64,000 nucleotides of DNA, from assembly GCA_015655585.1 (NCBI GenBank), contig JAATEV010000115.1, positions 1 through 64,000 of the forward strand, read 5' to 3'. Position 1 is the stretch's first letter. Each line of letters starts with the position of its first letter. The position numbers were made by a program, and so were the translations under genes. The DNA comes from Terriglobales bacterium (GTDB lineage: Bacteria > Acidobacteriota > Terriglobia > Terriglobales > Acidobacteriaceae). The notes under the pieces are model-generated. The model had not been told where the DNA came from, did not search any database, and saw only the letters and a program-made list of their open reading frames with translations. This document shows positions 34,907-49,467 of this stretch, one piece after another.

Positions 34907-34924
34907 GACGCCCTCCTATTCATC

Positions 34925-36001
34925 TCATCCAAACGTGAAGGAAAAGGCCTGTAATCCAGGCTCCAGAAACTCAATAGTGAAGGTGTGGTCCGCAACGGTT
35001 CCCTTCTGTCTCACCAATTGATACAAGCGGTGATCTGTCACCACGCCATTGCCTTGAGCATCCGTATCGACTCCATGATTCTCACCAGGAACCCGTCCGT
35101 CAATTGTTACCCGAAAGCGAACAGGCTTTCCATCAGCAGTCGAACCAAGTACAAGATGGAGGTCCCGGGCATGGAAACGGAAGATAATCTTTCCACCAGC
35201 AGATCTGAGCACTGCAACCTGCTGACGATCCATCCATTTACCCCCAAGCCCCCACTCATTTAGCTGAAGGTGATTCGGCTCAGCGTAAAGCTTTTCTACA
35301 TCTCGCTTGATTCCTCCTGAAGATGCAAAGCGTTCCGCGCGTTCATATCCGATGTATGTCTCAGGAGAGCGAGCATCGTTCGTATCCGCGGCAGCCTGAA
35401 CCCCCTGCCCATGAACACTCACGGTACTTGTTGCCATCGGTTTCGCGTTAGCTTCCTGAAGTAACTGCTGTATCCAGCGTTCGGACTGGTCGTACTCCCC
35501 TTCGCCGAAGTGCTCGTAACGCACCTTGCCTTTCGCATCGATGAAGTAGTGGGCAGGCCAATACTGATTGTGAAACGCATCCCAGATCGCATCATTGTTA
35601 TCGAGCGCAACAGGATAGCCAATGCCAAATTTATTCACTGTCTTCTGAACATTTGGCATCTGCTTCTCGATATCAAACTCAGGAGTATGAACTCCTATCA
35701 CGACTAGGCCGCTATTCTTATATTTCTCCGCCCAGGCGCGAACATAGGGTATCTCGCGAATGCAGTTAATGCAGGAATAATCCCAGAAATCGACAAGAAC
35801 AACCTTGCCTTTAAGCTGCTTTGCTGTCAGAGGAGTGGAATTGATCCATCCGGTCGCACCAGACAGACCAGATAACGGGAAGTTTCCTACAGCACTTGAT
35901 TGCTGCTGCGCCTCAACCAGAGGTGTGCTGGCAGTCATACACGCTAGAGCCGCAACAAGCGCAACCGACTTCATATTTTTCCAAAAGGAAACAACGGACA
36001 T
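34925..36001 (-). CDS. Exported thioredoxin-fold protein with DipZ-type C-terminal domain
   Basis: 358 residues. A signal peptide (SVALVAALACMTAS region) leads to a thioredoxin/TlpA-like domain (about 40-190) with the active site CINC in WDYSCINC, a long insert, and PAHYFIDAKGK with the cis-Pro region. The C-terminal part (about 215-358) matches the carbohydrate-module-like domain found in DipZ-like thioredoxins (IIFRFHARDLHLVLG, PVRFRVTIDG). It lies directly upstream of exported msrB, which makes it the likely reductant or partner in periplasmic repair. The start ATG has AGAGG. Confidence 0.88.
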   Translation of the reverse strand: MSVVSFWKNMKSVALVAALACMTASTPLVEAQQQSSAVGNFPLSGLSGATGWINSTPLTAKQLKGKVVLVDFWDYSCINCIREIPYVRAWAEKYKNSGLVVIGVHTPEFDIEKQMPNVQKTVNKFGIGYPVALDNNDAIWDAFHNQYWPAHYFIDAKGKVRYEHFGEGEYDQSERWIQQLLQEANAKPMATSTVSVHGQGVQAAADTNDARSPETYIGYERAERFASSGGIKRDVEKLYAEPNHLQLNEWGLGGKWMDRQQVAVLRSAGGKIIFRFHARDLHLVLGSTADGKPVRFRVTIDGRVPGENHGVDTDAQGNGVVTDHRLYQLVRQKGTVADHTFTIEFLEPGLQAFSFTFG

Positions 36002-36131: not shown

Positions 36132-37079
36132 TCAAACCTTAAACGATTTCAGCACCTGCTCCACATCAGCGAGTTGCAACAGAAGTTGCCTTTCATGCTC
36201 CTGAAAAAATGCCCGCAGCATATCGAGCTGAGATGTTGCCGAGCTGTTGCCAATGTCATCGCGAAGCTGTTCCGTTTTCCGTCGACAAACGCTGTAGAGG
36301 ATTGGTCTAATCATGGGATGCACTGCCTGACGATCAACATCCATAACATTGGACGCATTAAAAAAGTTCTCAGTGATCGCCCAGCTAGGCGTGAGATTGC
36401 GTACCTGGTGCCGCCATCCGGAGGGCGTAAACATGGTCTCTCCCGCTTTCAATATCGCTCTGAAACAGCGTACTGTTCGGAACGCCGGAAACTTGTCGAA
36501 ATCTGGATTAAAAGCATCAGCCACACCGCAATACGACTCAGGCAAATCATCCGGTGGAAATAAGACCCATTCTTTTTCACCGAAGATCTGGGTCAGCCAA
36601 GCGTGTGTTCCGCTTGTGTCAACGTGCAATGGAGAACCTGTCGATCGAGGCCCAATAAAAAACCATCGAAATGACGGTCTACTATGAACTGGAAAATCTG
36701 CAAACCAATCATCGACAAAAGCGGGAGTCTTGTAGTCATCACATAACTCGTCGCCGAAGTGAAGATCTTTGAGATATAGCGGACCATTCTTGACTGGATA
36801 TTCATCCGGATTAAAGATGTATGCGATGTACTCGGAGAGGCGAGCTTGCTGCTTCTCATTGAGGGAGTCGGTCAACTCGACCTGAACCTCTCCATATTGT
36901 GTAACAAGCCACTCCCATGTCCATTTCTCAAGAGCCTGCCAGTTAGCAGAGGCATCCGTAATAATAAGCGGGATGCGAGGAATTAGATAATGGCTATAGA
37001 ATTCCTCTGCGGTGATAGAAGATACAGAAGCAAGTTCTACTTCATTCGAAAAAATAGAATTGCCAGTCATGATATCCAT
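36132..37079 (-). CDS. JmjC/cupin_8-type Fe(II)/2-oxoglutarate oxygenase
   Basis: 315 residues, last gene of the biosynthetic operon. The iron ligands are clear: H152-x-D154 in SPLHVDTSG and H224 in SGWRHQVRN; the intervening GEKEWVLFPP and KAGETMFTP segments are those of cupin-like JmjC hydroxylases. Such enzymes hydroxylate protein or peptide side chains or small molecules. It is lower in GC than the flanking core genes. A 74-base gap separates it from the oxidoreductase gene, so it may also have its own promoter. The ATG has GAGGACC upstream. A tailoring role is inferred. Confidence 0.85.
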   Translation of the reverse strand: MDIMTGNSIFSNEVELASVSSITAEEFYSHYLIPRIPLIITDASANWQALEKWTWEWLVTQYGEVQVELTDSLNEKQQARLSEYIAYIFNPDEYPVKNGPLYLKDLHFGDELCDDYKTPAFVDDWFADFPVHSRPSFRWFFIGPRSTGSPLHVDTSGTHAWLTQIFGEKEWVLFPPDDLPESYCGVADAFNPDFDKFPAFRTVRCFRAILKAGETMFTPSGWRHQVRNLTPSWAITENFFNASNVMDVDRQAVHPMIRPILYSVCRRKTEQLRDDIGNSSATSQLDMLRAFFQEHERQLLLQLADVEQVLKSFKV

Positions 37080-37153
37080 TAGGTCCTCGACCTTTCAACA
37101 TCCTATTGAGTTGCGCAAATGTCTCCCTACAGGGGCTACCCCTATTACTTCGC

Positions 37154-38146
37154 TCAAGGCACGAGTACAATTTTCCCGCACTGCTGATTTGACTCCATGT
37201 ATCGATGTGCCTCGACAACGCTTGTGAGAGGAAAAACCCGGTCGACAGAAGGATTGATAACTCCCTCCTCTAAGCGGTCTAGGATAAACTTTTCGGCCTT
37301 CTTCCTCTGCTCAGGAAAACGAACCATGGAGAGATTTCTATACGCATGGACCACAACACACTTCTGCAGAGCCAACAGCAATGGAAACACGGTTAACTCG
37401 GTACTCAGTGTTCCGTACAGAACTATGCGGCCTCCAAATGAAGCTGCCTGTACTAATTTAGAGACCATGCTGCCTCCGACAGCATCGAACATGACATCGG
37501 CGCCTGCGCCTGAAGTAATTTCCGCAACGCGTGCAAGCATATCCTCCTCTGTCGTAACGAGAACATCGTACGCGCCGGAATCCATAAGATACATTTTCTT
37601 CAAGGGATTCCGTGTAGTAGCTATTACTTTTGCATTCACAGATCTCGCCATCTGCATAGCAATTGCTCCAACGCCACTGCTGGCTGCAGAAATAATTACA
37701 TACTCTCCAGATGTAAGTCCCCCTGTATAAATTAATCCCCCATAGGCAGTTAATGCCGCCATCCAAATGGAAGCAGCATCTACCGCTGGCAAATACTCAG
37801 GACAAAGAGTAAGCGAATATTCAGGCATGACAACAAGTTCGCCATAGCTACCATATTCGTGCATGGAAAATATGGGAAGAGTGGCAACACGCTGTCCTTT
37901 TCTAAAATAAGTTACCTCTGAGCCGATCTGTTGAATAATGCCTACAGCCTCAAAACCGAGGCCGGAAGGATATTTATTAGGCACTTCAAGATATTTTCCT
38001 AACCGAAATGCCAGTTCAGCACGATTCAATCCAATCGCTTCAACAGACAGCAATACTTCATTCGCTCGCAGCTCAGGAATTGGCCGCTCCTCAACCTTGA
38101 GTACATCTGCAGAACCTGGTTCATAAAAAACAACAACACGTGGCAT
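37154..38146 (-). CDS. Medium-chain dehydrogenase/reductase, quinone oxidoreductase-like
   Basis: About 330 residues of the zinc-independent MDR family. The GroES-like half has VGLNRAELAFRLG-type catalytic-site residues (IGLNRAELAFR here) and GFEAVGIIQQIG; the Rossmann half has IISAASSGVGAIAMQMA and the AITSGAGADVMFDAVGGS motif of quinone oxidoreductases/enoyl reductases. The Cys and His ligands of zinc alcohol dehydrogenases are absent. In the cluster it could act as enoyl reductase or reduce an intermediate. ATG at 38146 with AGGTGA upstream; a GTG three codons earlier overlaps the preceding stop. Confidence 0.88.
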   Translation of the reverse strand: MPRVVVFYEPGSADVLKVEERPIPELRANEVLLSVEAIGLNRAELAFRLGKYLEVPNKYPSGLGFEAVGIIQQIGSEVTYFRKGQRVATLPIFSMHEYGSYGELVVMPEYSLTLCPEYLPAVDAASIWMAALTAYGGLIYTGGLTSGEYVIISAASSGVGAIAMQMARSVNAKVIATTRNPLKKMYLMDSGAYDVLVTTEEDMLARVAEITSGAGADVMFDAVGGSMVSKLVQAASFGGRIVLYGTLSTELTVFPLLLALQKCVVVHAYRNLSMVRFPEQRKKAEKFILDRLEEGVINPSVDRVFPLTSVVEAHRYMESNQQCGKIVLVP

Positions 38147-38151
38147 AACGA

Positions 38152-38829
38152 TCACCTAGGAACTGCGATACGAATCTCGCAGCCAAGACTAGCATAACCA
38201 CTGACAGGCGCAAGCACTACCACCTCACCTTTCAAATCAGCTTTTTGTACAAAGTGGCGGATCTCCTCGGTCGTGTATTTCTCTTCAGATCTGCTTTCCT
38301 CAACCCCAGCCTGACTTCGCAGTCTATTGAATATTTCAAGCGCTCTCGGATCTGCATCGCGACGTACTTCATGGATGAGAGCCACACCGCCAGGCGCAAG
38401 GCAACGACGAACCTCAATCAAAGCTGCGGATGGATCGGCCAGATGATGTAACGTTGACCGACTAGCGATAAAGTCCAGACTACCGTCGACAAAGGGAAGC
38501 TGATGCATATCGCCATGCACGACTCGGATGCGATGACAAAACATTTCCTTCTGGATGTTCTCCCGAGTCACATGCAGCATGTCCTCAAAGTAATCGAGTC
38601 CAATAAAATCCAGTTGATTAAATTCAGGCATTGATGCCAGTCGGAGCAAAAATCGGCCAGTGCCACAACCTGCATCCAGAAAGCGACGGCCACCAGGGTT
38701 ACTACGAACCTCCTGACGAACCCGCAGAAGAAGAAGGTCGTCGAATCTCCCCAAAAAACCATTTGTAAAGCGATCATAAATCTGAGCCGAGTAATGCACC
38801 GGCATGTTCTCGCGCTGTTCCACACTCAT
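38152..38829 (-). CDS. Class I SAM-dependent methyltransferase
   Basis: 225 residues. Motif I RRFLDAGCGTGRFLLRL, the acidic ribose-binding residue in IGLDYFEDML, the VHGDMHQLPF loop and SLDFIASRSTLHHLADP are typical of UbiE/BioC-like enzymes. The target (O-, C- or N-) is not indicated. The start overlaps the stop of the condensing-enzyme gene (ATGA) and the next gene follows closely, so it is part of the same operon. Tailoring of the product, or esterification to protect a carboxyl as BioC does, are both conceivable. Confidence 0.88.
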   Translation of the reverse strand: MSVEQRENMPVHYSAQIYDRFTNGFLGRFDDLLLLRVRQEVRSNPGGRRFLDAGCGTGRFLLRLASMPEFNQLDFIGLDYFEDMLHVTRENIQKEMFCHRIRVVHGDMHQLPFVDGSLDFIASRSTLHHLADPSAALIEVRRCLAPGGVALIHEVRRDADPRALEIFNRLRSQAGVEESRSEEKYTTEEIRHFVQKADLKGEVVVLAPVSGYASLGCEIRIAVPR

Positions 38830-40022
38830 GAGGGCGCTCCTACGTTATGTGCAGTCACATGTGCTACTGCATTGAGCAATAGAAATTCTCTATCTGATGG
38901 TTTTGATTCGGTGTCCTTTTGGACTTCCACAAGAATTCGATCAAGCATATCGGATGAAAAATAATATCCCCTTTTATTCAGATAGGCTTCTATGGCAGCA
39001 CGTCCGCTATGTTTGCCAATAACAAGCACGGCATCTTTGCCACCCACCAATGCAGGGCGAAATGGCAAATATGTATCGATGTCTTTCATAAGCCCATCCT
39101 GATGCACTCCAGCCTCTGTTGAAAACACATGCGAACCAACAACAGACTTATTCGGAGCAACAGGAATACCTGTCTCACGAGCGACAAGATGGCTAAGTGA
39201 AGTCAGGTGGTCAAGCTTTACAGAATGCCTGCATTTGTATTGCTCCGAATGCACCGATAACGTAAGAGCAACTTCTTCGAGAGAAGCATTCCCAGCACGT
39301 TCGCCAAGTCCGTTTATGGTGCATTGCACCACACGTACACCTTCTTCAATTGCAGCCAGAGTATTGGCCGTCGCTAAACCAAGATCATCATGGAAGTGTG
39401 CGGCCAATGGAATCTTGTCTAGCGCGGAAACATGTTCCCGTATATATCGAATCGATTTACGCACCTGTTCAGGCGTCATAATTCCAACGGTATCCGGAAA
39501 AGAAACGGACGTAGCTCCAGCATCTATTGCCTCCTTATAGGCTTCACATAGAAAGTCGGGCTCTGTCCGTGAAGCATCTTCGGGGCTGAACGAGACCAGA
39601 CGAAAGCTCTTACGCGCATAATGAATGCTGCTAGATATCATTTCCAGAATCTCAATCTTGCTTTTGCGCAATTTGACTTCCCGATGGAGCTTGCTTGTTG
39701 CCAGAAAGATATTAACCGAACTTCGAAATGGATTTGCATTTTCAAAAGCCACACGAGCAGCATCAATATCGCCGGGCAAAGCGCGGCAGAGCGCCATAAC
39801 TACCGGCCCACGCAGATTAGCCGCAATAATTTTTACGGCCTCAGTCTCCGATGATCCACATGCAGGAAAACCCGCTTCTATTGAGTTGATACCGGCTTCT
39901 GCTAGAGCTTGTGCAATCAGAAGCTTCTGCTCTGGACGCAGAGAGGCACCTATCATCTGCTCTCCATCACGCAGAGTCGTATCACTCAATAGAACCTGAC
40001 GTAAATGATTCGAATCAGTCAT
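38826..40022 (-). CDS. 2-isopropylmalate synthase-like condensing enzyme (short form)
   Basis: About 398 residues of the HMGL-like (DRE-TIM metallolyase) family, which condenses acetyl-CoA with a 2-oxo acid. Motifs: DTTLRDGEQ with the metal Asp, FSPEDASRTE, FPDTVGIMTP, HFHDDLGLATANTLAA and GERAGNASLEE; LeuA/homocitrate synthase-like PNKSVVGSHVFSTEAGVHQDG and GKHSGRAA follow. The C-terminal leucine-binding regulatory domain of LeuA is missing. It therefore probably supplies a dedicated 2-hydroxy-dicarboxylate building block without Leu feedback. The ATG at 40020-40022 overlaps the MaoC stop. The true substrate (isopropylmalate, citramalate, homocitrate type) cannot be told from sequence. Confidence 0.85.
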   Translation of the reverse strand: MTDSNHLRQVLLSDTTLRDGEQMIGASLRPEQKLLIAQALAEAGINSIEAGFPACGSSETEAVKIIAANLRGPVVMALCRALPGDIDAARVAFENANPFRSSVNIFLATSKLHREVKLRKSKIEILEMISSSIHYARKSFRLVSFSPEDASRTEPDFLCEAYKEAIDAGATSVSFPDTVGIMTPEQVRKSIRYIREHVSALDKIPLAAHFHDDLGLATANTLAAIEEGVRVVQCTINGLGERAGNASLEEVALTLSVHSEQYKCRHSVKLDHLTSLSHLVARETGIPVAPNKSVVGSHVFSTEAGVHQDGLMKDIDTYLPFRPALVGGKDAVLVIGKHSGRAAIEAYLNKRGYYFSSDMLDRILVEVQKDTESKPSDREFLLLNAVAHVTAHNVGAPS

Positions 40023-40485
40023 AATAGCGCACCATGAACTCCGCAACGCAGGCGGGAAGAACTCCGCCGTCACGTTCAACAGTCACCAGCCACACCGCTT
40101 GCGTTGAGCTCTTCAATCGCTCACATCGCATAAGACGGACACGTCCACGAATCAGAGAACCCACGGGAACAGCCGAGACAAATCGAACATAATTCACACC
40201 AGTAACCAGGCCGTACTGAACACCTTGCATCTTTACACCACCCATCAGAAAGTGAGCAGCCATGGCAAGACTAAATAAACCATGAGCGATCGTTCCCTTA
40301 AAAGGGGACTCCGTCTTCGCCCGCTCCGGATCGACATGAATCCACTGTTGATCCATACTAAGTTCAGCAAAAGTATCAATCTTCTCCTGCGTAATCTTGA
40401 GATAAGGAGTAAGAGCGACATCTTGATTCTGTAATTTCTGCAAATATTCAAATCCAGCAATAATATGCTGTTCCATTAAATCCAT
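40015..40485 (-). CDS. MaoC-like hot-dog dehydratase
   Basis: 156 residues. The hydratase motif FAELSMDQQWIHVDPERA with the catalytic Asp/His pair, then SPFKGTIAHGLFSLAM, places it among R-specific enoyl hydratases/dehydratases. With the ketosynthase pair, ketoreductase and ACP it should dehydrate beta-hydroxyacyl-ACP to enoyl-ACP and so introduce double bonds. The ATG shares bases with the ketosynthase stop (TAATG). Confidence 0.88.
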   Translation of the reverse strand: MDLMEQHIIAGFEYLQKLQNQDVALTPYLKITQEKIDTFAELSMDQQWIHVDPERAKTESPFKGTIAHGLFSLAMAAHFLMGGVKMQGVQYGLVTGVNYVRFVSAVPVGSLIRGRVRLMRCERLKSSTQAVWLVTVERDGGVLPACVAEFMVRYYD

Positions 40486-41705
40486 TAGCTAACCCTTTCC
40501 ACAGCGATGGCAGCCACATTTCCACCAAATGCAAATGAGTTGGAGAGCGCAACCCGAATCTGTTGCTTGCGAGAAGCAGTACAGACAAGATCGATATCTT
40601 CAAAACCAGGTTCTGGATTATCCAACCATAGTGTTGCCGGCACGCAGTCGTTTTGCATCGCCAACAGAGTAGCAATAAACTCAACACTCCCTGTGGCTCC
40701 CAGAGAGTGGCCATGATGACCTTTAGTAGAACTCACAGCAACAGGGCTACCCCCATGTCGCCTTGTAAGTAGTTCCCGAATTGCAATTAGCTCTGCTTTA
40801 TCATTCACTTCAGTTCCCGTACCATGGGCGTTGATATAGTCAAGACGACTCAAATTGTCCTCGCTCTGTCCCAACGCATTCCACATTACCCGAGCCCCTG
40901 TCTGCCCTGTCGGATCAGGAGAAGTAGGATGGTACGCCTCATTGACCGCGCTATAACCAATCATGCGCGCAAGTATATTTGCATTGCATCGCCTTGCCAT
41001 CTCCTCTTCTTCAAGCACCACCAGTGCAAATGCATCGCCCAGCATCATTCCATCGCGATCTGCATTGAACGGATGGCAACCATTCTTCCCAATCAATCGA
41101 AGAATGTTGAACCCTGTCAGGGAAATATCGCTGAAGTACCCATAACCACCAGCGAAAACACGGCGCGCACGTCCCTGACGTATCCAGTCATATCCCGTTC
41201 CAATGGAGCTTGTTCCCGAAGCACATGCAGTTGAGATCAGCGACGATGGCCCCTTTACCCCTAGTGTTTCTGTAAGCTCATGCAGAAACGCAGCCGAGCT
41301 CAAGCTAGTGTGCGATTCGACATAACTACCTAGAGCATTTACTTCCCCTCGCTGCACCTTTAGAAAGTCTAGATAGCGTGACGTGGCTCCTCCATTCGAA
41401 GACCCCATACACAGACCAATATCATAGGGGGATAAGCCTTCAGGAGAAGATCCCAGACTATCCAGCACATCGGAGATAACCTCTCCCATCAAGCGGCTTG
41501 AACACAACTCAGCGCTGCGTGGATCGCTCGGCACCTCTGGAATAACCGCGGCCTCCTTTGAGCGGAATACCCAATGACTTACATCGAAGCGGGTAATATC
41601 TTTCCTGCCTGGCTGCATAGCGACCAGACCTTCCCAGAAGAGATCGATGCCACGTCCATATGGACTCCAGATCGCCATACCGGTCACAACAACAGATCTG
41701 TTCAT
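40485..41705 (-). CDS. Beta-ketoacyl synthase, FabF-like, active
   Basis: 406 residues of the KAS II/type II polyketide synthase family. The catalytic triad is complete: C161 in STACASG, H294 in INAHGTGT and H333 in KGHHGHSLGATG, with the Lys (K328) just before. It should extend ACP-bound acyl chains with malonyl-ACP. A degenerate partner is encoded two genes upstream in the operon, as in KS-CLF pairs of aromatic and highly reducing type II systems, including aryl polyene pathways. Starts and stops overlap those of neighbouring genes. Confidence 0.92.
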   Translation of the reverse strand: MNRSVVVTGMAIWSPYGRGIDLFWEGLVAMQPGRKDITRFDVSHWVFRSKEAAVIPEVPSDPRSAELCSSRLMGEVISDVLDSLGSSPEGLSPYDIGLCMGSSNGGATSRYLDFLKVQRGEVNALGSYVESHTSLSSAAFLHELTETLGVKGPSSLISTACASGTSSIGTGYDWIRQGRARRVFAGGYGYFSDISLTGFNILRLIGKNGCHPFNADRDGMMLGDAFALVVLEEEEMARRCNANILARMIGYSAVNEAYHPTSPDPTGQTGARVMWNALGQSEDNLSRLDYINAHGTGTEVNDKAELIAIRELLTRRHGGSPVAVSSTKGHHGHSLGATGSVEFIATLLAMQNDCVPATLWLDNPEPGFEDIDLVCTASRKQQIRVALSNSFAFGGNVAAIAVERVS

Positions 41706-42451
41706 AAGCTGCCTCCTCCATCCAACTCAATGCACTGACCGACAACGTAAGTAAAGTCTGGACGAGCAAGCGCCGAGACAACCGCTGCGACCTCATTAGC
41801 CTGTGCAATGCGGCCAATAGGGATGCGCTGTCCCATGTGGGTTAATGCTTCCCGGTCATTCGTACCGAGCATCTCCGTTTCCGTGAATGCCGGAGCAACA
41901 GCATTCACACGAATTCCCTTGGAGATCAGTTCACGTGCCATCCCCCGGCTCAAATTTGTAAGCGCTGCCTTCGAGGCGCTATATGCCGTCAATCCAATCT
42001 GCGGCTGAGAACCGGAGCGGGAAGAGATATTGATAATGGCACCGGACTTTTGTGGCAACATCAGACGAATCGCTGCCTGAGAGCAAAGTACGGTGCCCTT
42101 AAGATTTGCCTCAAAAACTTCAAGAAACTTACTCCATGGCGTCAGAGCAAAGAGCGCCGAGTGCGTAACACCTGCATTGTTCACCAGTACATCGAGTCTC
42201 CCATGTCGACGACGTATCTCTTCAAACATCCCGCGAACCTCATCGGACTCACATGCATTCGCTCGATAAATCCACGCATGTCCTCCATCACCCTTAATGT
42301 TGGCGCAAACACACATCGCCGCATCATGACGACTGACATAATTGATAACAACGGTATAACCATCCTTTGCCAGCCGCTCACAGATAGCTCGTCCAATACC
42401 ACGAGAGCCACCTGTAACAAGCGCGACTTTTTCGGTAGAGTCACCACTCAT
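41702..42451 (-). CDS. 3-oxoacyl-ACP reductase (FabG-like ketoreductase)
   Basis: 249 residues, short-chain dehydrogenase family. NADPH-binding VTGGSRGIGRAI, structural NNAG in VLVNNAGVTHS, and the catalytic Ser in NISSRSG with YSASK are present, so the enzyme should be active on beta-ketoacyl-ACP. It overlaps the flanking ketosynthase genes at both ends (ATGA), which fixes its role in the same chain-building machinery. Confidence 0.93.
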   Translation of the reverse strand: MSGDSTEKVALVTGGSRGIGRAICERLAKDGYTVVINYVSRHDAAMCVCANIKGDGGHAWIYRANACESDEVRGMFEEIRRRHGRLDVLVNNAGVTHSALFALTPWSKFLEVFEANLKGTVLCSQAAIRLMLPQKSGAIINISSRSGSQPQIGLTAYSASKAALTNLSRGMARELISKGIRVNAVAPAFTETEMLGTNDREALTHMGQRIPIGRIAQANEVAAVVSALARPDFTYVVGQCIELDGGGSL

Positions 42452-43650
42452 GGCCTATCTCCTATGACGAAGGCTGAGTTTTGTCCGGACATTTCCAGGC
42501 TTATCACCACTCCAAATCCATTCGAAATTGAGACCGGAGCTTCCGTAACTATATTGGTGTCAAAGGTCTCTTCTGTCCGACAAGTGCCAACCGTCGGCGG
42601 TAGCACCTTATCGCGCATAGCAAGAACCGCAGCGAAAAACGATGCACTTCCTGAAGCGCCCCACATTTCTCCTATACCACCTTTGATAGAAAAAATCGCT
42701 GGCCGATGAGGAAACACGGCGGAGATAGCTGCAAGCTCGGAGCTGTCGATAGAAGAAACTCCATTTGCGGCTCCTGAAATAAATACAACCTCATCTGGAT
42801 CGACATTGGCCTCAACTAAACTACGACGAATTGCTTCAGCAATATCGTCTGTACTACGTTCCGCCGGATTCTTCCATGCAAGGCTATCTGTAACCGTACC
42901 GAAGCCTTTCAGATAAGCGAGCGGCTTGGCAGAGCGAGAAGATACGAAACCGGATCGTTCCAGTACAAAGAAGACACTTCCTTCACCGGGAATCAAACCA
43001 TGCGATGAAGAACTATAAGGCTGACCGGCACCGCCGCTCGATCCTGCACAGCAACTCAACCGAGCCCTGTAGCACAGCTCTGAAACATACTCTGAGAGCT
43101 CATCCATACCACCCGCCACCATAACATCGGCACTATCACTGCGAAGTTGGTCCAGTGCGGCCCCGATTGCAGGAGGACCAAAGTGCATTGAACTTGGTCC
43201 ACGAAGTTTGAGCTGTATTGCGAGCGAACCTAGAACACTATTCGCAATGGTCTGTACAAACTGCAAACCACTCGCACCGCTCGGTCCCTTCGTCCAAAGC
43301 GTCTCATAATACTGACCGATAATCTGATGCTGACCAAAGTTACGATTGATCAGCAGGCCAGCACGTTCTGGAGCAACACCTGTAAGCTCTCCAGCAGATC
43401 TCCAGGCCTCTTCCGCAGCCAGTCGTGCAAGCAATGTAGGACGTGTTGGACGCGATAGACCTGAAGATGGAACCTGCTCACTCAGCAGCTCGATCGACGG
43501 AGCAAGCATCGCAAGACTTGTACGTCCCAGGTGCGATCTCATAATCTCTGGCGCTCGTTCATTTCGCAAGAGTTTGTCCCACGCTGCTTCAACGCCAAGC
43601 CCATATGCAGAGACACACCCCATCCCCACGATTGCCGCGCTTGCATTCAT
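42448..43650 (-). CDS. Degenerate ketosynthase (chain-length-factor-like)
   Basis: 400 residues with the overall ketosynthase fold (AIVGMGCVSAYGLGVEAAW at the start; SIKGGIGEMWGASG near the end) but without the catalytic residues. Where the active partner has STACASG, this reads SSMHFGPPAIGAAL with about five residues fewer and no Cys. NAHGTGT is replaced by SGAANGV, and the second His by Glu in GEMWGA. It is thus expected to form a heterodimer with the active synthase and limit chain length, as a CLF does. Overlapping junctions link it to ketoreductase and ligase genes. Confidence 0.87.
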   Translation of the reverse strand: MNASAAIVGMGCVSAYGLGVEAAWDKLLRNERAPEIMRSHLGRTSLAMLAPSIELLSEQVPSSGLSRPTRPTLLARLAAEEAWRSAGELTGVAPERAGLLINRNFGQHQIIGQYYETLWTKGPSGASGLQFVQTIANSVLGSLAIQLKLRGPSSMHFGPPAIGAALDQLRSDSADVMVAGGMDELSEYVSELCYRARLSCCAGSSGGAGQPYSSSSHGLIPGEGSVFFVLERSGFVSSRSAKPLAYLKGFGTVTDSLAWKNPAERSTDDIAEAIRRSLVEANVDPDEVVFISGAANGVSSIDSSELAAISAVFPHRPAIFSIKGGIGEMWGASGSASFFAAVLAMRDKVLPPTVGTCRTEETFDTNIVTEAPVSISNGFGVVISLEMSGQNSAFVIGDRP

Positions 43651-45191
43651 CTAACCTCACTGCCTTTCTGTTGCTCTTCTGAAGAAGTAGATGCAGTAAT
43701 TCGCTCATCAAATATAGCTAGCATCTTCTGCTCCTTCGAAGAGAGAGCACCCATCCCCTGATTCAACACAAAGTGAGTCGGCATCTCCGTTGAAGTAAGC
43801 CATCGACTATAAAACCTTCGCAACTGTTCGATGGATTGCAGCGAGCCCTTCCGCACTGACAACGTTGCAACTGGAACCTGCCCCCAAAAAGGATGAGACT
43901 GTGCATGAACCACAGCATTCATCACGTCGGGATGACGAAGCAGAACCGATTCGATCATCTCCGCCGCAATCAGAACACCCCCCCTGTTGATAGAGCGGTC
44001 GAGTCTTCCGCGGATATAGAGTCGTCCCTCATCAAACTCGCCAAGATCCGTGGTTCGCAATACATGATCGCCTCCCTCCACCCACACCTCATCAACATAA
44101 GAGCGCATCAACGAGCTACTGCGAACCCGAATCTCAGATATCCCATCCTGAGTTGCATCAATGCGAACCTCAAAATTTGGCAACGGCTTGCCAACACAAG
44201 CAGGATCGATCGGGTCGCGGTCGACGAATAGAGTCGCCACACGCGGTCCTGCCTCTGTAAGCCCGTAAGTAATGGCGAACGTAGTAGCTGGCAGAAGATC
44301 CATCGCATCTGCCAGAAGCTCTTTCGAAACTCGTCCAGCTCCCACCGTAACAAGACGCAATTCCGGACATCTTCGACCTGTAGCACGCAAGCCTTCAACA
44401 AAAATCTTCAGCATTGCCGGAACCGTCGAAAGCGTTGTAATTTTCCCTTCTTCCAAATTGCGACAAAGTGAAGGAGCAAAAAGAGGCTGACGCGGGCAAA
44501 AGAGCGTCGCTCCTACTGCCAGATGACATAAGCATTGATGGATCAGAGCATACGCATGAGCAACCGGTAATACAACCAGAGTGCGGTCTTCATCCCTAAG
44601 GCCAAGCGAACTTATATTGGAACGGATATTGGAAAGCACGGAACGATGCTGAAGAACCACACCTCTAGGAGAGCGTGTCGATCCTGAACTCCAGATAATA
44701 AGTGCAGGATCAACATCAATCACCGGATGCGTATGACTCACTCTATCCAAAGTTTTAGCCGTAAAGATACGGATTCCAGTAGGCATAACAACCTCATGCC
44801 ATGACTCAGGAATGAGGTTCGCTCCGCTGAATTCAAAATCTGCCGGAGTAATTACACCTTCCAGATTTGAATCTACAGCCATCTGCTCCAGCCACTCCGT
44901 AGTGCGGCTTCTCTGCATTGGTGCAGCAACCGCACCCAGGCGAACAAGGGCAAAGAGTAAGATAAAAAAATCCGCCGAGTTATCGGCGATGAGCCCCCAA
45001 CGCTGAAATCGTTCAATCCCGAAATCAGACAACTCCTTCGAACGCGCAATCGAACGCTCTCGCAACTCCGCATACGTGACGGATGCATTATCTTCGATCG
45101 CGACGCGCGTTCCATAGAAGCGTGCAGGCCAATCCAGCAGATCACCAATGCAGAACGGCGCGCCGCCCATCGCCTCACTCAAATTCATCAT
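43647..45191 (-). CDS. AMP-dependent acyl/aryl ligase
   Basis: 514 residues of the ANL superfamily. P-loop LIIWSSGSTRSPRGVVLQH, the adenine motif ITYGLTEAGP, the TTDLGEFDEG hinge-region Asp and the SINRGGVLIAAEM C-terminal segment are present. The usual catalytic Lys near the C-terminus falls in MGALSSKEQK, which fits. It should adenylate a carboxylic acid and load it on the ACP encoded just upstream, providing the starter unit or activating the finished chain. Start and stop overlap the neighbouring genes. Confidence 0.88.
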   Translation of the reverse strand: MMNLSEAMGGAPFCIGDLLDWPARFYGTRVAIEDNASVTYAELRERSIARSKELSDFGIERFQRWGLIADNSADFFILLFALVRLGAVAAPMQRSRTTEWLEQMAVDSNLEGVITPADFEFSGANLIPESWHEVVMPTGIRIFTAKTLDRVSHTHPVIDVDPALIIWSSGSTRSPRGVVLQHRSVLSNIRSNISSLGLRDEDRTLVVLPVAHAYALIHQCLCHLAVGATLFCPRQPLFAPSLCRNLEEGKITTLSTVPAMLKIFVEGLRATGRRCPELRLVTVGAGRVSKELLADAMDLLPATTFAITYGLTEAGPRVATLFVDRDPIDPACVGKPLPNFEVRIDATQDGISEIRVRSSSLMRSYVDEVWVEGGDHVLRTTDLGEFDEGRLYIRGRLDRSINRGGVLIAAEMIESVLLRHPDVMNAVVHAQSHPFWGQVPVATLSVRKGSLQSIEQLRRFYSRWLTSTEMPTHFVLNQGMGALSSKEQKMLAIFDERITASTSSEEQQKGSEVR

Positions 45192-45475
45192 CAGCCCAGC
45201 CTTGGCGCTTCTGCTTTTTCATGAATCTCGCACCGCAGGTAATCTGCCAGTGTAGAGACGCTGAAAAAATCTGAGGCTTGAATGGTATCCAGAGGAGATT
45301 GAAATTTATCTGAAAGAGCCGCAAGAATCTCTAGACTATTCAGAGAGTCAAGCCCAATACCACCTGCAGCTTCAGCGCCAAAAAGCGGTGCGTCCTTCGC
45401 AATGCTATCTGGTGAAATAGAAAGCCCTAGCGCATCTACGATTGTTTGCTGAATAACTTCTTCTAAATGATCCAT
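45191..45475 (-). CDS. Acyl carrier protein
   Basis: About 94 residues, acidic and helical. The phosphopantetheine site is S44 in GIGLDSLNSLE. It should carry the growing chain for the synthase pair, reductase and dehydratase. The ATG at 45473-45475 has GGAGG eight bases upstream; 82 bases separate it from the preceding oxidoreductase gene, the largest gap before the last gene of the operon, so an internal promoter is possible. Confidence 0.9.
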   Translation of the reverse strand: MDHLEEVIQQTIVDALGLSISPDSIAKDAPLFGAEAAGGIGLDSLNSLEILAALSDKFQSPLDTIQASDFFSVSTLADYLRCEIHEKAEAPRLG

Positions 45476-45557
45476 CGCATATCCTCCGGAAAAAATAAGT
45501 ATTCTTACCTGCAAGATGTCACTCTTCAGACGATGGGAAAGGATTGCAAAGAAAACT

Positions 45558-46625
45558 TTATATCGTGTTTGGAATGTCTATCTGGTATTTCTCCGCCACA
45601 TGCATAAGATTTGTCCAGAGATGCGACGAGACAGGAATACCATCGCGAAGACGCTGCTTCTCAACTCTCCCTTCGCGTTCGCCGGCCATCAATATATCTT
45701 CAAAGCCGGGAGCGATCCTCGCCCCCTTAAGAATCTTCTTCAGTTCATCGACCCTCGCAACGAAATTATCCAGCGATAGAAACCGCTGCACATCTATCGC
45801 GAGAAAAGTGTGACTCACTCCCGCTGGACGATCTCGGACTCGCAACGAGCCGACCTGATGTGCCATAGCACCCCCGCTCAACACTCCACAGAGAATTTCA
45901 ATCGCAACGGCAAGGCCGCTGCCTTTAAACCCGGCGTCCTTCCCTCCGAGCGGCATCAGCGTGCCCTTCATCGCGGCGGTCGCACTCGTTGTCAGATCTC
46001 CCATAGCATCCAGCGCCCAGCCTTCAGGAATTGTCGCCCCTCCAGACAGTACGACATCGACAATCTTCCCCGCCGCTACTGTCGTTGTTGCCATATCAAG
46101 AACCCAACCTCCCGGAACAGTCACACAAATCGGATTCGTACCAAGCAACGGCTCGACGCCTTGCCATGGAGCGACCAGAGGCGATGCATTGGAGAAGACA
46201 ATTCCGATACAACCTTCCAGTGCCATCATCTCTCCCCAAAATGCAGCCCTGCCAAAATGGTTCGAATTTCTTGCGACTACTAACCCGGTTCCAAATCCAC
46301 GAGCAAGCCGAACCGCTTCCTCGCAACATTTTGCTGCAACAACTTGTCCTAATCCGTTCTCTCCGTCGTACAGGATGCAGCTAGAAGATTCTTCTATAAC
46401 TGATCCCACAGATTTGGGATCGATATTTTTCGCAGCCAGTTGCTCAACATAGGGAGGAACCAACTGGATGCCATGCGAATCGACACCACACAAATTCGCC
46501 TTGACCAGCGACGTTGCCACACATGCAGCATGATCTACAGGAACATGGAGCCTACAAAAAATATCACAAATGAATCTCTGAAGAGCTTCATGGCATACCA
46601 GATTTTTCTTAATCTCTACAGGCAT
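45558..46625 (-). CDS. Ldh/type 2 malate-lactate dehydrogenase family oxidoreductase
   Basis: 355 residues of the COG2055 family (malate/L-lactate/ureidoglycolate dehydrogenases and delta1-piperideine-2-carboxylate reductase). Typical segments are VKANLCGVDSHGIQLVPPYVE with the catalytic His, VARNSNHFGRAAFWGEMM, FSNASPLVAPW and MPLGGKDAGFKGSGLAVAIE. It uses NAD(P)H to reduce 2-oxo acids or cyclic imines. In the cluster it might reduce a 2-oxo precursor made with the LeuA-like enzyme, or an imine derived from an amino-acid side chain. It lies two bases after the LpxL-fold gene. Confidence 0.88.
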   Translation of the reverse strand: MPVEIKKNLVCHEALQRFICDIFCRLHVPVDHAACVATSLVKANLCGVDSHGIQLVPPYVEQLAAKNIDPKSVGSVIEESSSCILYDGENGLGQVVAAKCCEEAVRLARGFGTGLVVARNSNHFGRAAFWGEMMALEGCIGIVFSNASPLVAPWQGVEPLLGTNPICVTVPGGWVLDMATTTVAAGKIVDVVLSGGATIPEGWALDAMGDLTTSATAAMKGTLMPLGGKDAGFKGSGLAVAIEILCGVLSGGAMAHQVGSLRVRDRPAGVSHTFLAIDVQRFLSLDNFVARVDELKKILKGARIAPGFEDILMAGEREGRVEKQRLRDGIPVSSHLWTNLMHVAEKYQIDIPNTI

Positions 46626-46626
46626 A

Positions 46627-47772
46627 TCAGACTTTCAGTGAAACCTCGCGAGAGGATTTATCTTGGTTCTTCGAAGTCACTACCGGCAGAATAAAATGCG
46701 ATTCATAGAGAGTACGCAATGCCAGTTTCAACTCAGTCTCTGAAAACATATGCTTAAGCGCACTCACAATCTCGGTGCCTCTCCTCTCCTGGCTCAGGGC
46801 CTGACATAGGGAATTCATGAGTGGTGTCATTGCAAGTGCGGTTCCGCATCTGAGACTCACAAGAACTTCCCCCTCAGACATCTTCAGAACCTCAACATTT
46901 TCAGCATTCATCCTCCAGTTCTTTTCAAGAAATCCCTCATCATCAAGAATGGAAGAAGACGGAAGCATCGGCTCGAAACGATTCCGCAAATTGAAATGGC
47001 ACCATTCTTCCCAGCACGGCAGATCCGCGCGAACTTCACTTTCCAGAATGGAAACAAATGTCTGGGAAGCGCGTTGGCAGAACCCCGCAATCGTTTCAGA
47101 GGAGTGCCTGGTTAGCGGCGCTTCAAAACGGACAACCATGCCACCGATGCCATCATTATGTGTCACAGCGAGAATCAAGGGAGCGCCAGTCTTTGCGCTC
47201 ACAAAGGCAAGCCCCATTCGAACCAATATCTGTGTCTCGCAGAAATCAACACTGACAGCACTTTGAGGAGACTGGCTGGCAGTTGTTCCAGTCAGGCCAT
47301 CGAACCAGCCGATCAGCGTTCTTCGTTCACGAAGCGCACAAACCATCTTCCAGATCGCTGTAGGTTCTTCTGAGTTAATGTACTTTACCGGATCGATAAG
47401 AGTATCGGTGTAACTGGATTCACGTGCGTCCCAGCGTCGTTGCTCTTCTTGAAAGTTGGCCGCATCCATTAATAGAGTTGTCGGAAGGTCAGCCTTTTTA
47501 TTCAGAACCAGAGGAATCCAATTGTAAGGACCAACTTGAAACGACGTAACAACAGCTCCTCGACCAGCTTCGTGTGCCTTCCGTAAATACTCCAGCCCTA
47601 CAATCTTCACTCGCGATAACTCTTGATTGTTGATCCAGTACCGAAGATTATCGTTGCGCCTTCTGGCACAGCGAGCAGCGTGCGTCCACAACGTATCGCG
47701 TGCAATCGTCTTACGGAGTGCAAGCCGCATCCCTAAAAAACTAAGTTGCTCAATGTCGTTCAGAGTTGTCAT
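46627..47772 (-). CDS. LpxL/LABLAT-fold acyltransferase-like protein lacking the catalytic motif
   Basis: 381 residues. The fold is suggested by VKIVGLEYLRKAHEAGRG followed by AVVTSFQVGPYNWIP, the place where lipid A acyltransferases have HxGNWE/D. Here the His is replaced (Gln79/Val80) and no acid follows at the expected distance, so the ordinary HX4D/E chemistry is lost. Later segments such as GRGAVV, LIGWFDG, APLILAVTHNDG and GMVVRFEAPL also match the family. Aryl polyene-like pathways carry an intact acyltransferase of this type. Here it may use another mechanism or act as an acyl-binding partner. Its start overlaps the arginase-like gene stop (ATGA). Confidence 0.72.
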   Translation of the reverse strand: MTTLNDIEQLSFLGMRLALRKTIARDTLWTHAARCARRRNDNLRYWINNQELSRVKIVGLEYLRKAHEAGRGAVVTSFQVGPYNWIPLVLNKKADLPTTLLMDAANFQEEQRRWDARESSYTDTLIDPVKYINSEEPTAIWKMVCALRERRTLIGWFDGLTGTTASQSPQSAVSVDFCETQILVRMGLAFVSAKTGAPLILAVTHNDGIGGMVVRFEAPLTRHSSETIAGFCQRASQTFVSILESEVRADLPCWEEWCHFNLRNRFEPMLPSSSILDDEGFLEKNWRMNAENVEVLKMSEGEVLVSLRCGTALAMTPLMNSLCQALSQERRGTEIVSALKHMFSETELKLALRTLYESHFILPVVTSKNQDKSSREVSLKV

Positions 47773-48998
47773 AGAAGACAGCTTCCCTCCACGTCCCTGC
47801 TCGAAAAGACCGCTCCTAGCAATGTCATCAGAAGATGCAATCCACTCGATGCAGTTCTAAGATACTGATCCCGATCCGGATTGATCTCAACGATATCGAC
47901 ACCGACAACGCGACGACTCTTTCCAATCACAGAAAGAATCTCTTTCACTGCATCGAAAGATAGTCCACCCGGAATAGGAACATTGGTTGCAGGAGCAACC
48001 AAGGGATCCAGCACATCGATGTCGAACGATACATACACAGGCATACCTTCCGGAAAATTCGAGAGAACTCCTGCGGCTTTTTTCTGCAAGGCATCCGAAG
48101 CGCCCATAAGTACGTGATTCAAATTCAAAGAAGGCTGCTTCATCATTTGAAACCCTTTAAGACCAACGCTCACAAATGGCATCCCGGGATTTTCTTCAAT
48201 AAGACATCTTGCGAAATTTCCATTCGTCGGCACACTGTATCTCCCCCGCTCTGCCAGGTCAGAGTGGGCATCCAAATGCAAAACAGCAATGGGTTCATGG
48301 CTCGCACTCAGCACTCCCGAGATTGTCCAATACGATATCGAGTGATCCCCCCCTAGAACAACCGGAACGCTTTTTAAAGCAACACATCTCCGCACAAGTT
48401 GAGACAAACGAACTCCATATCTCTCGGCTGGCTCTCCCAACTGCGGCACAACATCACCAGCATCCACAAATGTCACACCCTCTAAAACGTGGTGCCCAGC
48501 AGCAACATCGAACCAACCACGCGGAGAAAGGTCCGCATCTACTGCGTACTCCAACTGGCTGGATGCAACACGAATTGCAGCCGGCGCTGCTCTCGCTCCA
48601 CTCCCAGTCTGACTTGAAAAATCCGATGGAGCCCCAAACACCGTGACCTGCGCTTCCCCTGCAGAGCCTTTTGGACAATTCAAAAATCTCGGAAAGAAAT
48701 CCGATATAAGCCCCTGACCGGGTAACTCCTCAGCCGCTTCGACCAGCAACCCAGCATTCAAAAGCTTTGCCAGTGTTGTCGATGTAAGATTCCACTGCGA
48801 ATACAGAGCCGCAATGTCTGTCGGCGAATCCAACGCCTTCAAACACTCCGCTACATCCTGCGAAATAACGAATTCAAGATTTGGTAAAGGTCCACGAGCC
48901 GTGTAAGACCCCGCAGCCTGCACCAGAAGTTCAATATGAGGAGAGCGCTGCAACAGAAACGGTCTCCTCATATTGTTTTGGTTAGCATAATCGTTCAC
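47769..48998 (-). CDS. Arginase/agmatinase-fold ureohydrolase with N-terminal winged-helix (RRE-like) region
   Basis: 409 residues, longer than usual for the family. The C-terminal part (about 115-405) has all dimanganese ligands: H219 in GGDHS, D243-A-H245-S-D247, and D326-I-D328 in SFDIDVLDP, so hydrolysis of a guanidino group to amine and urea is expected. Residues about 20-95 form an extra segment (EFVISQDVAECLKALDSP, then TTLAKLLNAGLLVEA) reminiscent of the PqqD/winged-helix peptide-recognition elements in RiPP enzymes. Peptide arginases that make ornithine in ribosomal peptides are known. It directly follows the small peptide gene by 46 bases. The alternative is deprotection of a guanidino polyketide. 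The start is a GTG. Confidence 0.8.
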   Translation of the reverse strand: MNDYANQNNMRRPFLLQRSPHIELLVQAAGSYTARGPLPNLEFVISQDVAECLKALDSPTDIAALYSQWNLTSTTLAKLLNAGLLVEAAEELPGQGLISDFFPRFLNCPKGSAGEAQVTVFGAPSDFSSQTGSGARAAPAAIRVASSQLEYAVDADLSPRGWFDVAAGHHVLEGVTFVDAGDVVPQLGEPAERYGVRLSQLVRRCVALKSVPVVLGGDHSISYWTISGVLSASHEPIAVLHLDAHSDLAERGRYSVPTNGNFARCLIEENPGMPFVSVGLKGFQMMKQPSLNLNHVLMGASDALQKKAAGVLSNFPEGMPVYVSFDIDVLDPLVAPATNVPIPGGLSFDAVKEILSVIGKSRRVVGVDIVEINPDRDQYLRTASSGLHLLMTLLGAVFSSRDVEGSCLL

Positions 48999-49044
48999 AA
49001 ATCACCGTTCGATACAGCATGAAACTTAGCTGTACGGCTATCAA

Positions 49045-49350
49045 TTAGCCATGGGTGATCGCAGTAACTGCGGTGAGGCCATGCGCCAGAGCAGCGACCT
49101 TGACGACCTCTTCAGCAGCCAGACCAGCAGCAGAACGGCTGGCAGCCTGCGCGCCCAGCCCGACGTGAAGGATGCCGTTTTGCAGAGAGGCGGATGCAGT
49201 TGCTTTGCTTACAGTGGAAAGAGATGCGCCGTGACCTGCGACAAACACGGTAGCCGTGTCTGCGCCCGCAGGCTTAGTGTAAACAGCGTCAAACTTTCCA
49301 CTCTTGGCAAAAGCGGCGGGAATGCTCTTGGGAATGACAAGATTAGCCAT
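49045..49350 (-). CDS. Ala-rich small peptide, candidate RiPP precursor or structural peptide
   Basis: 101 residues, 25 of them Ala, no Cys or Trp, and a single Arg (R72 in AASRSAAGLAAE). The first part (MANLVIPKSIPAAFAKSGKF) looks like a leader; the rest alternates Ala/Ser/Thr/Val and Gly. It is the first gene behind a strong promoter, followed after 46 bases by the arginase-like gene. This arrangement is usual for precursor peptides of ribosomal natural products. No known precursor family is recognised. Its base composition is higher in GC than the enzymes behind it. It might also be an unrelated small protein. The ATG has GAGG upstream. Confidence 0.65.
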   Translation of the reverse strand: MANLVIPKSIPAAFAKSGKFDAVYTKPAGADTATVFVAGHGASLSTVSKATASASLQNGILHVGLGAQAASRSAAGLAAEEVVKVAALAHGLTAVTAITHG

Positions 49351-49438
49351 AGAAACCTCGGATGATTTTTTGAGATTTGGCCCGGGAGGAAACTTGTTAT
49401 CCAGATATCAGTCTTTTGACTGAGAAATTACGTGGTTG

Positions 49439-49467
49439 ATCCTATAGAGCAGTCATACAAGTGTCAA
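49439..49467 (-). promoter_or_regulatory. Strong sigma70-type promoter of the biosynthetic operon
   Basis: On the minus strand TTGACA (49462-49467), exactly 17 bases, then TAGGAT (49439-49444). The -35 is a perfect consensus. The predicted transcript begins near 49432, giving an 80-base leader before the peptide gene at 49350. No similar promoter was noticed in the following 13 kb, apart from gaps at 45476-45557 and 37080-37153 that could hold secondary ones. Confidence 0.7.

What the first reader, a model, noticed from the sequence alone, without database searches (positions are those of the whole stretch)
36132..49467. Uncommon biosynthetic operon: small peptide + peptide-arginase-like enzyme + highly reducing type II synthase
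A 13-kb, tightly coupled, lower-GC operon starts with a strong promoter and a 101-residue Ala-rich peptide. It then encodes an arginase-fold enzyme with a winged-helix/RRE-like N-terminus, an LpxL-fold protein, ACP, AMP ligase, KS and degenerate KS, ketoreductase, MaoC dehydratase, a LeuA-like enzyme, methyltransferase, MDR and JmjC oxygenase. KS/CLF/KR/DH/ACP/ligase sets are known from aryl polyene-like and other highly reducing type II pathways. Arginases that turn Arg to ornithine, and fatty acylation of ornithine or lysine, are known from ribosomal lipopeptides (selidamides, goadvionin-like). Their union in one operon would be a lipidated RiPP assembled with an iterative type II synthase. 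The joint function is inference.
Basis: partly seen in the sequence, partly recalled or inferred. Interest (0 to 1): 0.93.

Follow-up and report, generated by a model that had tools for sequence, protein, structure and literature searches.

The report
Gene cluster for lipid-tailed ribosomal peptide
A 13-kb bacterial gene cluster looks like a factory that takes a small gene-encoded peptide, turns an arginine in it into ornithine and hangs a custom-built fatty chain on it, but no product has been seen.

Summary
Nine related clusters with an LpxL-like gene were read. Eight carry a tiny peptide gene with a shared LExR leader motif; the ninth has two other small Cys-rich peptides. One (G899) unites arginase, LpxL and the ketosynthase/CLF/ketoreductase/ACP/ligase set, as the window does; another (G204) has the set without arginase. 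Arg lies in the peptide core in 5 of 5 clusters with arginase and 0 of 4 without, which points to a peptide substrate. The arginase N-terminus and the LpxL tail resemble each other and, more weakly, PqqD (leader-recognition fold), above shuffled controls. Best reading: a lipidated RiPP whose chain comes from a dedicated type II synthase and is moved by an LpxL-like enzyme instead of a GNAT. Weak points: the window's 101-residue peptide is an orphan without Cys or leader motif and has a borderline coding score; its LpxL has Gln where the aligned relatives have His; acylation of ornithine cannot be the rule, because two of the relatives have neither Arg nor Lys in the core. New variant of a known kind.

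The parts
49439..49467 (-). sigma-70-type promoter TTGACA-17-TAGGAT
   Evidence: consensus match only
49045..49350 (-). 101-aa Ala-rich peptide, candidate precursor; one Arg (residue 72), six Lys, no Cys
   Evidence: no relative
47769..48998 (-). PF00491 arginase/agmatinase-family enzyme with N-terminal extension; all six metal ligands present
48723..48962 (-). PqqD/RRE-like N-terminal domain of the arginase (residues 13-92)
   Evidence: hhalign above 60 shuffles; low-confidence three-helix region in the model; no Pfam match
46627..47772 (-). LpxL-like acyltransferase homologue; Gln79 where the 8 other rows of A3 have His
46630..46899 (-). PqqD-like C-terminal tail of the LpxL-like protein (residues 292-381)
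   Evidence: no PqqD match in Pfam
45558..46625 (-).
45191..45514 (-). acyl carrier protein with DSL site (likely ATG start at 45475)
43647..45191 (-). AMP-forming acyl ligase
42448..43650 (-). chain-length-factor-like degenerate KS (Cys and both His lost)
41702..42451 (-). SDR ketoreductase with S...Y...K motif
40485..41705 (-). ketosynthase with Cys-His-His
40015..40485 (-). MaoC-type dehydratase
38826..40079 (-). LeuA/homocitrate-synthase-like enzyme (likely ATG start at 40022)
38152..38829 (-). class I SAM methyltransferase
37154..38155 (-). MDR (zinc-type dehydrogenase/enoyl reductase) family
36132..37079 (-). Cupin_8/JmjC oxygenase
   Evidence: Cupin_8 genes also sit beside arginases in L020

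Best explanation
A lipidated-RiPP pathway. The first gene makes a precursor peptide. The arginase docks on it through its PqqD-like N-terminal domain and hydrolyses Arg to ornithine (Arg72, if the 101-residue ORF is the precursor). A ligase loads a starter acid on the ACP; KS/CLF, ketoreductase, MaoC dehydratase and perhaps the MDR reductase build a reduced chain, with LeuA-like, Ldh_2 and methyltransferase shaping starter or chain. The LpxL-like enzyme, with its own PqqD-like tail, moves the chain from ACP to the peptide. The Cupin_8 oxygenase hydroxylates peptide or chain. Shown by computation: gene content, recurrence of the union in one other genome, peptide ORFs beside the relatives, Arg-arginase correlation, domain resemblance. 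Inferred: that the 101-residue ORF is the precursor, every enzyme activity, the acceptor atom (ornithine amine, N-terminal amine, Lys, Ser or Thr) and the product.
For: Of 80 arginase-family loci fetched, 3 hold an LpxL-like gene: L020 and L035 by tblastn with the window protein, L045 by a profile built from those three proteins. L020 and L035 also hold radical SAM genes (L020's best NCBIfam match is RiPP-maturase model TIGR04463, 203 bits, below its cut-off of 525). Searches with LpxL alone added L107-L111 and L134; of these six, two (L107, L110) also hold arginases, a figure free of the arginase-first bias. L110/L112: ligase, PPTase-like, CLF, KR, KS, ACP, two peptides, M50, arginase with N-terminal domain, hydrolase, LpxL. 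L133/L134: two peptides of 23 aa, M50 (daptide-protease model NF041824, E 2.8e-37, 129 bits, below its cut-off of 300), LpxL, CLF, KR, KS, ACP, ligase. CLF-KR-KS order is the same in all three. Arg in core: 5 of 5 clusters with arginase, 0 of 4 without; one-sided Fisher p 0.008, 0.014 with the two Myxococcus-class clusters merged. Leader motif in small ORFs: 8 of 9 clusters, against 6 such ORFs in 77 other loci, 1.45 Mb. LpxL tails vs arginase N-termini: hhalign probability 69; each vs PqqD 32 and 27; 0 of 60 shuffles as high in each. All six metal ligands kept.
Against: The window's peptide has no relative in 97 other genomes or plasmids, no LExR motif and no Cys, while all 12 peptides of the relatives have Cys in the core; no ORF of 20-130 aa in the 64 kb has the motif (one hit to a wider pattern lies in a longer frame). 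Its codon score is borderline. LpxL Gln79 replaces the His of the 8 aligned relatives, and the acidic partner of the HX4(D/E) motif (recalled) is not kept in the family. No protease or transporter among the 14 operon proteins. Pfam finds no PqqD in the window proteins. The uncurated LpxL-tail comparison gave no support (probability 1.3 vs PqqD), and even the curated tails do not match the M50 N-termini (1.8). Column shuffles destroy helix periodicity, so that control is lenient. Motif and core boundary were set after seeing the peptides.
Confidence: 0.6

Rival explanations
1. Small-molecule pathway: the arginase is an amidinohydrolase that unmasks an amine on an ACP-bound or free guanidino acid, and the operon makes a reduced polyketide or fatty amide without a peptide.
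For: Best sequence and fold matches are agmatinase, guanidinobutyrase/guanidinopropionase and proclavaminate amidinohydrolase. LeuA-like, Ldh_2 and the ligase belong to small-molecule enzyme families. The peptide is an orphan with a borderline coding score.
Against: PqqD-like domains on arginase and LpxL; sister clusters have peptide ORFs; the core-Arg/arginase correlation.
Confidence: 0.22
2. Lipidated RiPP as in the best explanation, but the true precursor lies elsewhere in the genome and the 101-aa ORF is a helper or not translated.
For: No LExR motif or Cys in the 101-aa ORF, borderline coding score; the genome is 75% complete.
Against: The ORF is first behind the operon promoter, the best of its six frames, where a precursor is often found, with an Arg in its second half. 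The rest of the genome was not scanned for the motif.
Confidence: 0.13
3. The clustering is accidental: a type II synthase operon that captured an arginase.
For: Such operons can be mosaic; no other same-genus genome listed has an LpxL-gene match at the thresholds used.
Against: The full union recurs in G899, a genome found in the family search of the Aquimarina genome; an arginase accompanies LpxL in 2 of the 6 clusters found by LpxL alone.
Confidence: 0.05

Closest known systems
Selidamides (phaeornamide, kamptornamide; passages of PMC9505594 and PMC13060382)
   Same: Arg to ornithine by an arginase, then hydroxylation (PhaI) and fatty acylation on a ribosomal peptide; the window has arginase, Cupin_8 oxygenase and an acyltransferase-like gene
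   Different: Selidamides use an OspR-like arginase (PF12640) and a GNAT; phaeornamide's fatty acid comes from primary metabolism; here PF00491, an LpxL-like protein and a dedicated synthase, and no lanthionine synthetase among the 14 proteins scanned
Enteropeptin arginase KgrD (PMC12703449, part 1 of 5 of the text)
   Same: A PF00491 arginase acting on a RiPP
   Different: KgrD needs a thiomorpholine and is followed by N-methylation; no acyl chain
Goadvionin, lipolanthines, lipoavitides (named in passages of PMC13060382 and PMC9505594; Ren 2024 known here by title only)
   Same: RiPP joined to an acyl chain; goadvionins and lipolanthines hybridise with polyketides (PMC9505594); lipoavitides use non-modular fatty acid synthases by the title of Ren 2024
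   Different: N-terminal acylation of class III lanthipeptides, with GNATs named for microvionin (PMC13060382); no arginase or LpxL in the passages seen
Highly reducing type II polyketide synthases (aryl polyene; PMC8358021, start of abstract in the listing)
   Same: KS/CLF pair; KR, DH, ACP and ligase by recall
   Different: Not known, to my recall, to feed a ribosomal peptide
Daptide-type M50 proteases (NCBIfam NF041824)
   Same: The M50 protein of L134 matches the model
   Different: Below the model cut-off (128.7 vs 300 bits); no M50 protein in the window operon

Membership tests
RiPP pathway | gene-encoded precursor peptide in the cluster | tested here: inconclusive
   Small peptide ORFs in all nine relatives; in the window only an orphan 101-aa ORF
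RiPP pathway | leader-recognition (PqqD/RRE) domain on a modifying enzyme | tested here: inconclusive
   hhalign probability 27 for arginase N-termini and 32 for curated LpxL tails vs PqqD, 0 of 60 shuffles each; uncurated LpxL tails 1.3; Pfam no PqqD match; N-terminus of the model pLDDT 33-66
RiPP pathway | peptide-derived product | not testable with these tools
   needs expression and mass spectrometry
PF00491 ureohydrolase | family profile and six Mn ligands | tested here: met
   E 7.3e-54; GGDHS, DAHSD, DID
PF12640 peptide arginase (OspR family) | PF12640 match | tested here: not met
   only PF00491 matched at E up to 0.1
Selidamides | GNAT that acylates Orn/Lys side chains | tested here: not met
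   no GNAT among the 14 operon proteins scanned with Pfam
Highly reducing type II PKS | KS with Cys-His-His plus CLF lacking them, KR, DH, ACP | tested here: met
LpxL/LpxM acyltransferase family | family profile | tested here: inconclusive
   window: NCBIfam 4e-5 at best, no Pfam match; L035 member PF03279 1.4e-8; L020 member none in Pfam, L110 member none in NCBIfam
LpxL/LpxM acyltransferase family | catalytic HX4(D/E) motif (recalled) | tested here: not met
   Gln79 in the window (codon CAA); His without the acidic partner in the 8 other rows of A3

The most novel reading that the evidence does not exclude
A distinct class of lipidated RiPPs, found here in Myxococcota, Bacteroidota and the window's own (unnamed, probably different) phylum: short peptides with an LExR leader motif, modified by LpxL-family acyl-ACP:peptide acyltransferases some of which carry their own PqqD-like domains, with an RRE-linked PF00491 arginase present when the core holds Arg, and in some lineages (window, G204, G899) fed by a dedicated highly reducing type II synthase. 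The window is the most divergent member, with a new precursor type.
Probability: 0.55. Interest if true: 0.88.

Novelty: new variant of a known kind. Interest (0 to 1): 0.78.

Why it matters
The side-chain lipidated RiPPs described in the passages I saw (PMC13060382, PMC9505594) rely on GNATs. An LpxL-type route with a co-encoded type II synthase would give genetically encoded lipopeptides with custom chains, a handle for genome mining (LpxL gene + LExR peptide + arginase), and a testable case of leader-docking domains grafted on two unrelated enzyme folds.

Tried and rejected
LpxL gene as single query: no relative in genome contigs (13 pattern matches, none confirmed) or plasmids; besides the window itself one family genome of the 200 searched (E 6e-4) and four phylum genomes of the 396 searched (E 2e-5 to 9e-5), five loci in whose short flanks a later look found no arginase, M50 or CLF neighbour. 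Peptide alone: no match (PHROGs). CLF and ligase in plasmids: the 15 listed hits each are at or under about 29% identity. Plasmid hits of the arginase: 20 of 573 records listed; H39 aligns from residue 40 (Mammaliicoccus), H32 from 53 but is a plain agmatinase; of the 5 records with 80% coverage, three were not identified. An Asn in place of the catalytic His of the arginase looked like inactivation, but Asn or Pro at that column also occurs in other aligned rows, so I dropped it. The uncurated LpxL-tail comparison (10 rows) failed, and one of its 40 shuffles gave a stray probability of 99.6; output files were not cleared between those runs, so the controls are less sure. I then trimmed by hand to 6 of 10 LpxL tails (left out: L020, L107, L045, L110, short or ill-fitting) and 6 of 8 arginase N-termini (left out: the two L107 near-duplicates), clearing outputs. 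This curation followed the first result. The motif pattern and the core boundary (after LExR; for L111 after LKAAK) were also set after viewing the peptides. An attempt to learn the window's taxon from a plasmid search with a flanking tyrosinase gave no clear answer.
Full report
Observation. The stretch 36132-49350 holds a 101-aa ORF and thirteen further ORFs on the minus strand, tightly packed, at G+C 0.46-0.52. KS2 keeps Cys-His-His; KS1 has lost the Cys and both His, as chain-length factors do; KR and ACP motifs are present. A good consensus promoter lies at 49467-49439.

The arginase. It is PF00491 (E 7.3e-54); nearest solved relatives are agmatinase and other amidinohydrolases. All six metal ligands are kept. 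An AlphaFold2 model from 37 sequences is confident over most of the core and poor over residues 1-110, where three short helices are drawn. PF12640, the peptide-arginase family of OspR, did not match; a PF00491 arginase, KgrD, acts on the RiPP enteropeptin (PMC12703449, part 1 of 5 read).

Hunting relatives. Single-gene searches with the LpxL gene found nothing useful. A plasmid tblastn with the arginase (573 records, 20 listed) showed one homologue that aligns from residue 40, on a Mammaliicoccus sciuri plasmid beside PLP enzymes, an ABC transporter and a GNAT. LpxL-like genes lie in 3 of those 80: L020 (Myxococcus vastator) and L035 (Marinifilum breve) by tblastn with the window protein, L045 (uncultured Aquimarina) by a profile of those three proteins. 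In L035 and L045 the LpxL gene directly follows the arginase; L020 has two arginase pairs, two Cupin_8 genes, a radical SAM gene and an LpxL gene.

Wider search. With LpxL alignment A2, 3 of 147 genomes of the Myxococcus class and 4 of 299 of the Aquimarina family matched at the set thresholds; each count includes a genome from which A2 was built. With A3, 47 of 396 genomes of the window's phylum passed 1e-8. Of these, loci of 20 were held: the window, G204 (53.8 bits) and 18 others (51.5 bits or less) whose flanks of up to about 1.5 kb show no arginase, M50 or CLF gene; 27 hits without a locus were not examined. In the genus of G899, 1 of 7 genomes, G899 itself. No call names the window's organism or phylum.

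The key relatives. L110/L112 (G899, found in the family search of the Aquimarina genome): ligase, PPTase-like protein, a 147-aa protein that looks like a hotdog dehydratase (by eye, not scanned), CLF, KR, KS, ACP, CAAX-type protease, two peptides of 42 and 45 aa, a DUF2306-like protein (just below cut-off), M50, arginase with N-terminal domain, alpha/beta hydrolase, LpxL, and a 735-aa protein that looks like a TonB-type receptor (by eye). L133/L134 (G204, same phylum as the window): two 23-aa peptides, M50, LpxL with tail, CLF, KR, KS, ACP, ligase, no arginase in the 30 kb read. KS identity to the window is 40.5% and 33.2%, KR 42.6% and 35.2%, CLF 30.7% and 25.7% (G204, G899); the order CLF-KR-KS is shared. 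A CLF profile from the three over 227 phylum genomes gives 651 and 673 bits for the window and G204 (they are in the profile) and at most 237 for all else, so I saw no third member there.

Peptides. Small ORFs (20-90 aa) carrying [EQM][LM]E[DETS]R sit in 8 of 9 LpxL clusters (L020, L107, L035, L045, L110, L109, L108, L134; not L111, which has two 73-aa Cys-rich peptides); the same scan of 77 other loci (1.45 Mb) gives 6. Beyond the motif, Arg is present in the cores of 5 of 5 clusters with an arginase (in both L110 peptides) and absent in 4 of 4 without one in the 20-30 kb read: one-sided Fisher p 0.008, or 0.014 counting the two Myxococcus-class clusters once. This supports a peptide Arg as the substrate. 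Each of the 12 cores has Cys. Because L108 and L134 cores have neither Arg nor Lys, LpxL cannot always acylate ornithine or lysine; an N-terminal amine or Cys/Ser/Thr is needed there. These peptides are ORFs that I picked, and motif and core boundary were set afterwards.

Bias. Three of the five arginase-bearing clusters were found through the arginase. Among the six found through LpxL alone, two have it (L107, L110).

Recognition domains. hhalign of curated alignments: LpxL tails against arginase N-termini probability 69.5 over 66 columns; LpxL tails against eleven PqqD sequences 32.5; arginase N-termini against PqqD 26.9 and against M50 N-termini 52.6; M50 N-termini against PqqD 69.1; but LpxL tails against M50 N-termini only 1.8. 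No shuffle reached the observed score in the five comparisons that had shuffles (59-60 each). For M50 vs PqqD the shuffles are those (40, highest probability 6.4). Before curation, LpxL tails gave 1.3 against PqqD. Pfam alone sees none of this in the window. In L020 the two domain-bearing proteins have lost metal ligands and are each paired with an intact arginase, as if one subunit delivered the peptide and the other cut it; in the window both are one chain.

The window's own weak points. The 101-aa ORF has no relative in 97 other genomes, no LExR motif (none in ORFs of 20-130 aa of the window), no Cys, one Arg at 72. Its codon score is the best of its six frames but inside the range of out-of-frame pieces. 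LpxL residue 79 is Gln (CAA) where the eight other A3 rows have His. There is no M50 protease or exporter among the 14 operon proteins.

Literature. No paper in the library held three or more of RiPP, 'lipid A acyltransferase', LpxL, 'precursor peptide'. Among the entries listed (8 to 20 of 16 to 106 each), I saw none whose title or abstract start joins a type II synthase, an LpxL enzyme and a RiPP. Only open-licence papers are held, and the closest precedent (Ren 2024, non-modular fatty acid synthases acylating ribosomal peptides) was seen by title only. Phaeornamide offers the same order of steps: arginase, hydroxylase, acylation (PMC9505594, passages).

Verdict. A lipidated RiPP made with a type II synthase is the best reading, now with independent support from related clusters, but for this operon precursor, acceptor and LpxL activity are unproven.

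Noticed in passing
L017:7617-15002 (Mammaliicoccus sciuri plasmid pWHA07): Arginase with a similar N-terminal domain beside two ornithine-decarboxylase-type proteins, a PLP enzyme, an ABC transporter and a GNAT; a 27-aa ORF ending SRPRLK lies just upstream and may be a precursor.
   Followed up: partly
L020:6407-12903; similar order in L107:2352-8851: Tandem pairs of a PqqD-like-domain pseudo-arginase (metal ligands lost, checked in L020 only) and an intact arginase, each pair followed by a Cupin_8 gene.
   Followed up: partly
L108:9324-12077, L109:6586-10527, L111:8609-10481: LpxL-type clusters without arginase in the stretch read (L109 with radical SAM, L108 and L109 with M50-like genes) and Cys-rich peptide ORFs; a wider LpxL-associated RiPP family.
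   Followed up: partly
window 34316-36001: MsrB and a thioredoxin-like (Thioredoxin_10) gene follow the operon on the same strand at intermediate G+C; may or may not belong to the island.
   Followed up: no
window 53530-55209: Tyrosinase with a DUF7868 domain, minus strand, largely overlapped by a 521-aa plus-strand ORF without Pfam match; listed plasmid relatives up to 49% identity.
   Followed up: partly
window 33873-34319: Cyanate lyase gene.
   Followed up: no
L112:8002-9408: The G899 ligase matches the 2-oxoglutaryl-ACP ligase model AmcH best (128 bits, next 68; model cut-off 370), a hint to the starter acid; in the window ligase the same model ranks sixth (142 bits against 201 for the best).
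   Followed up: no
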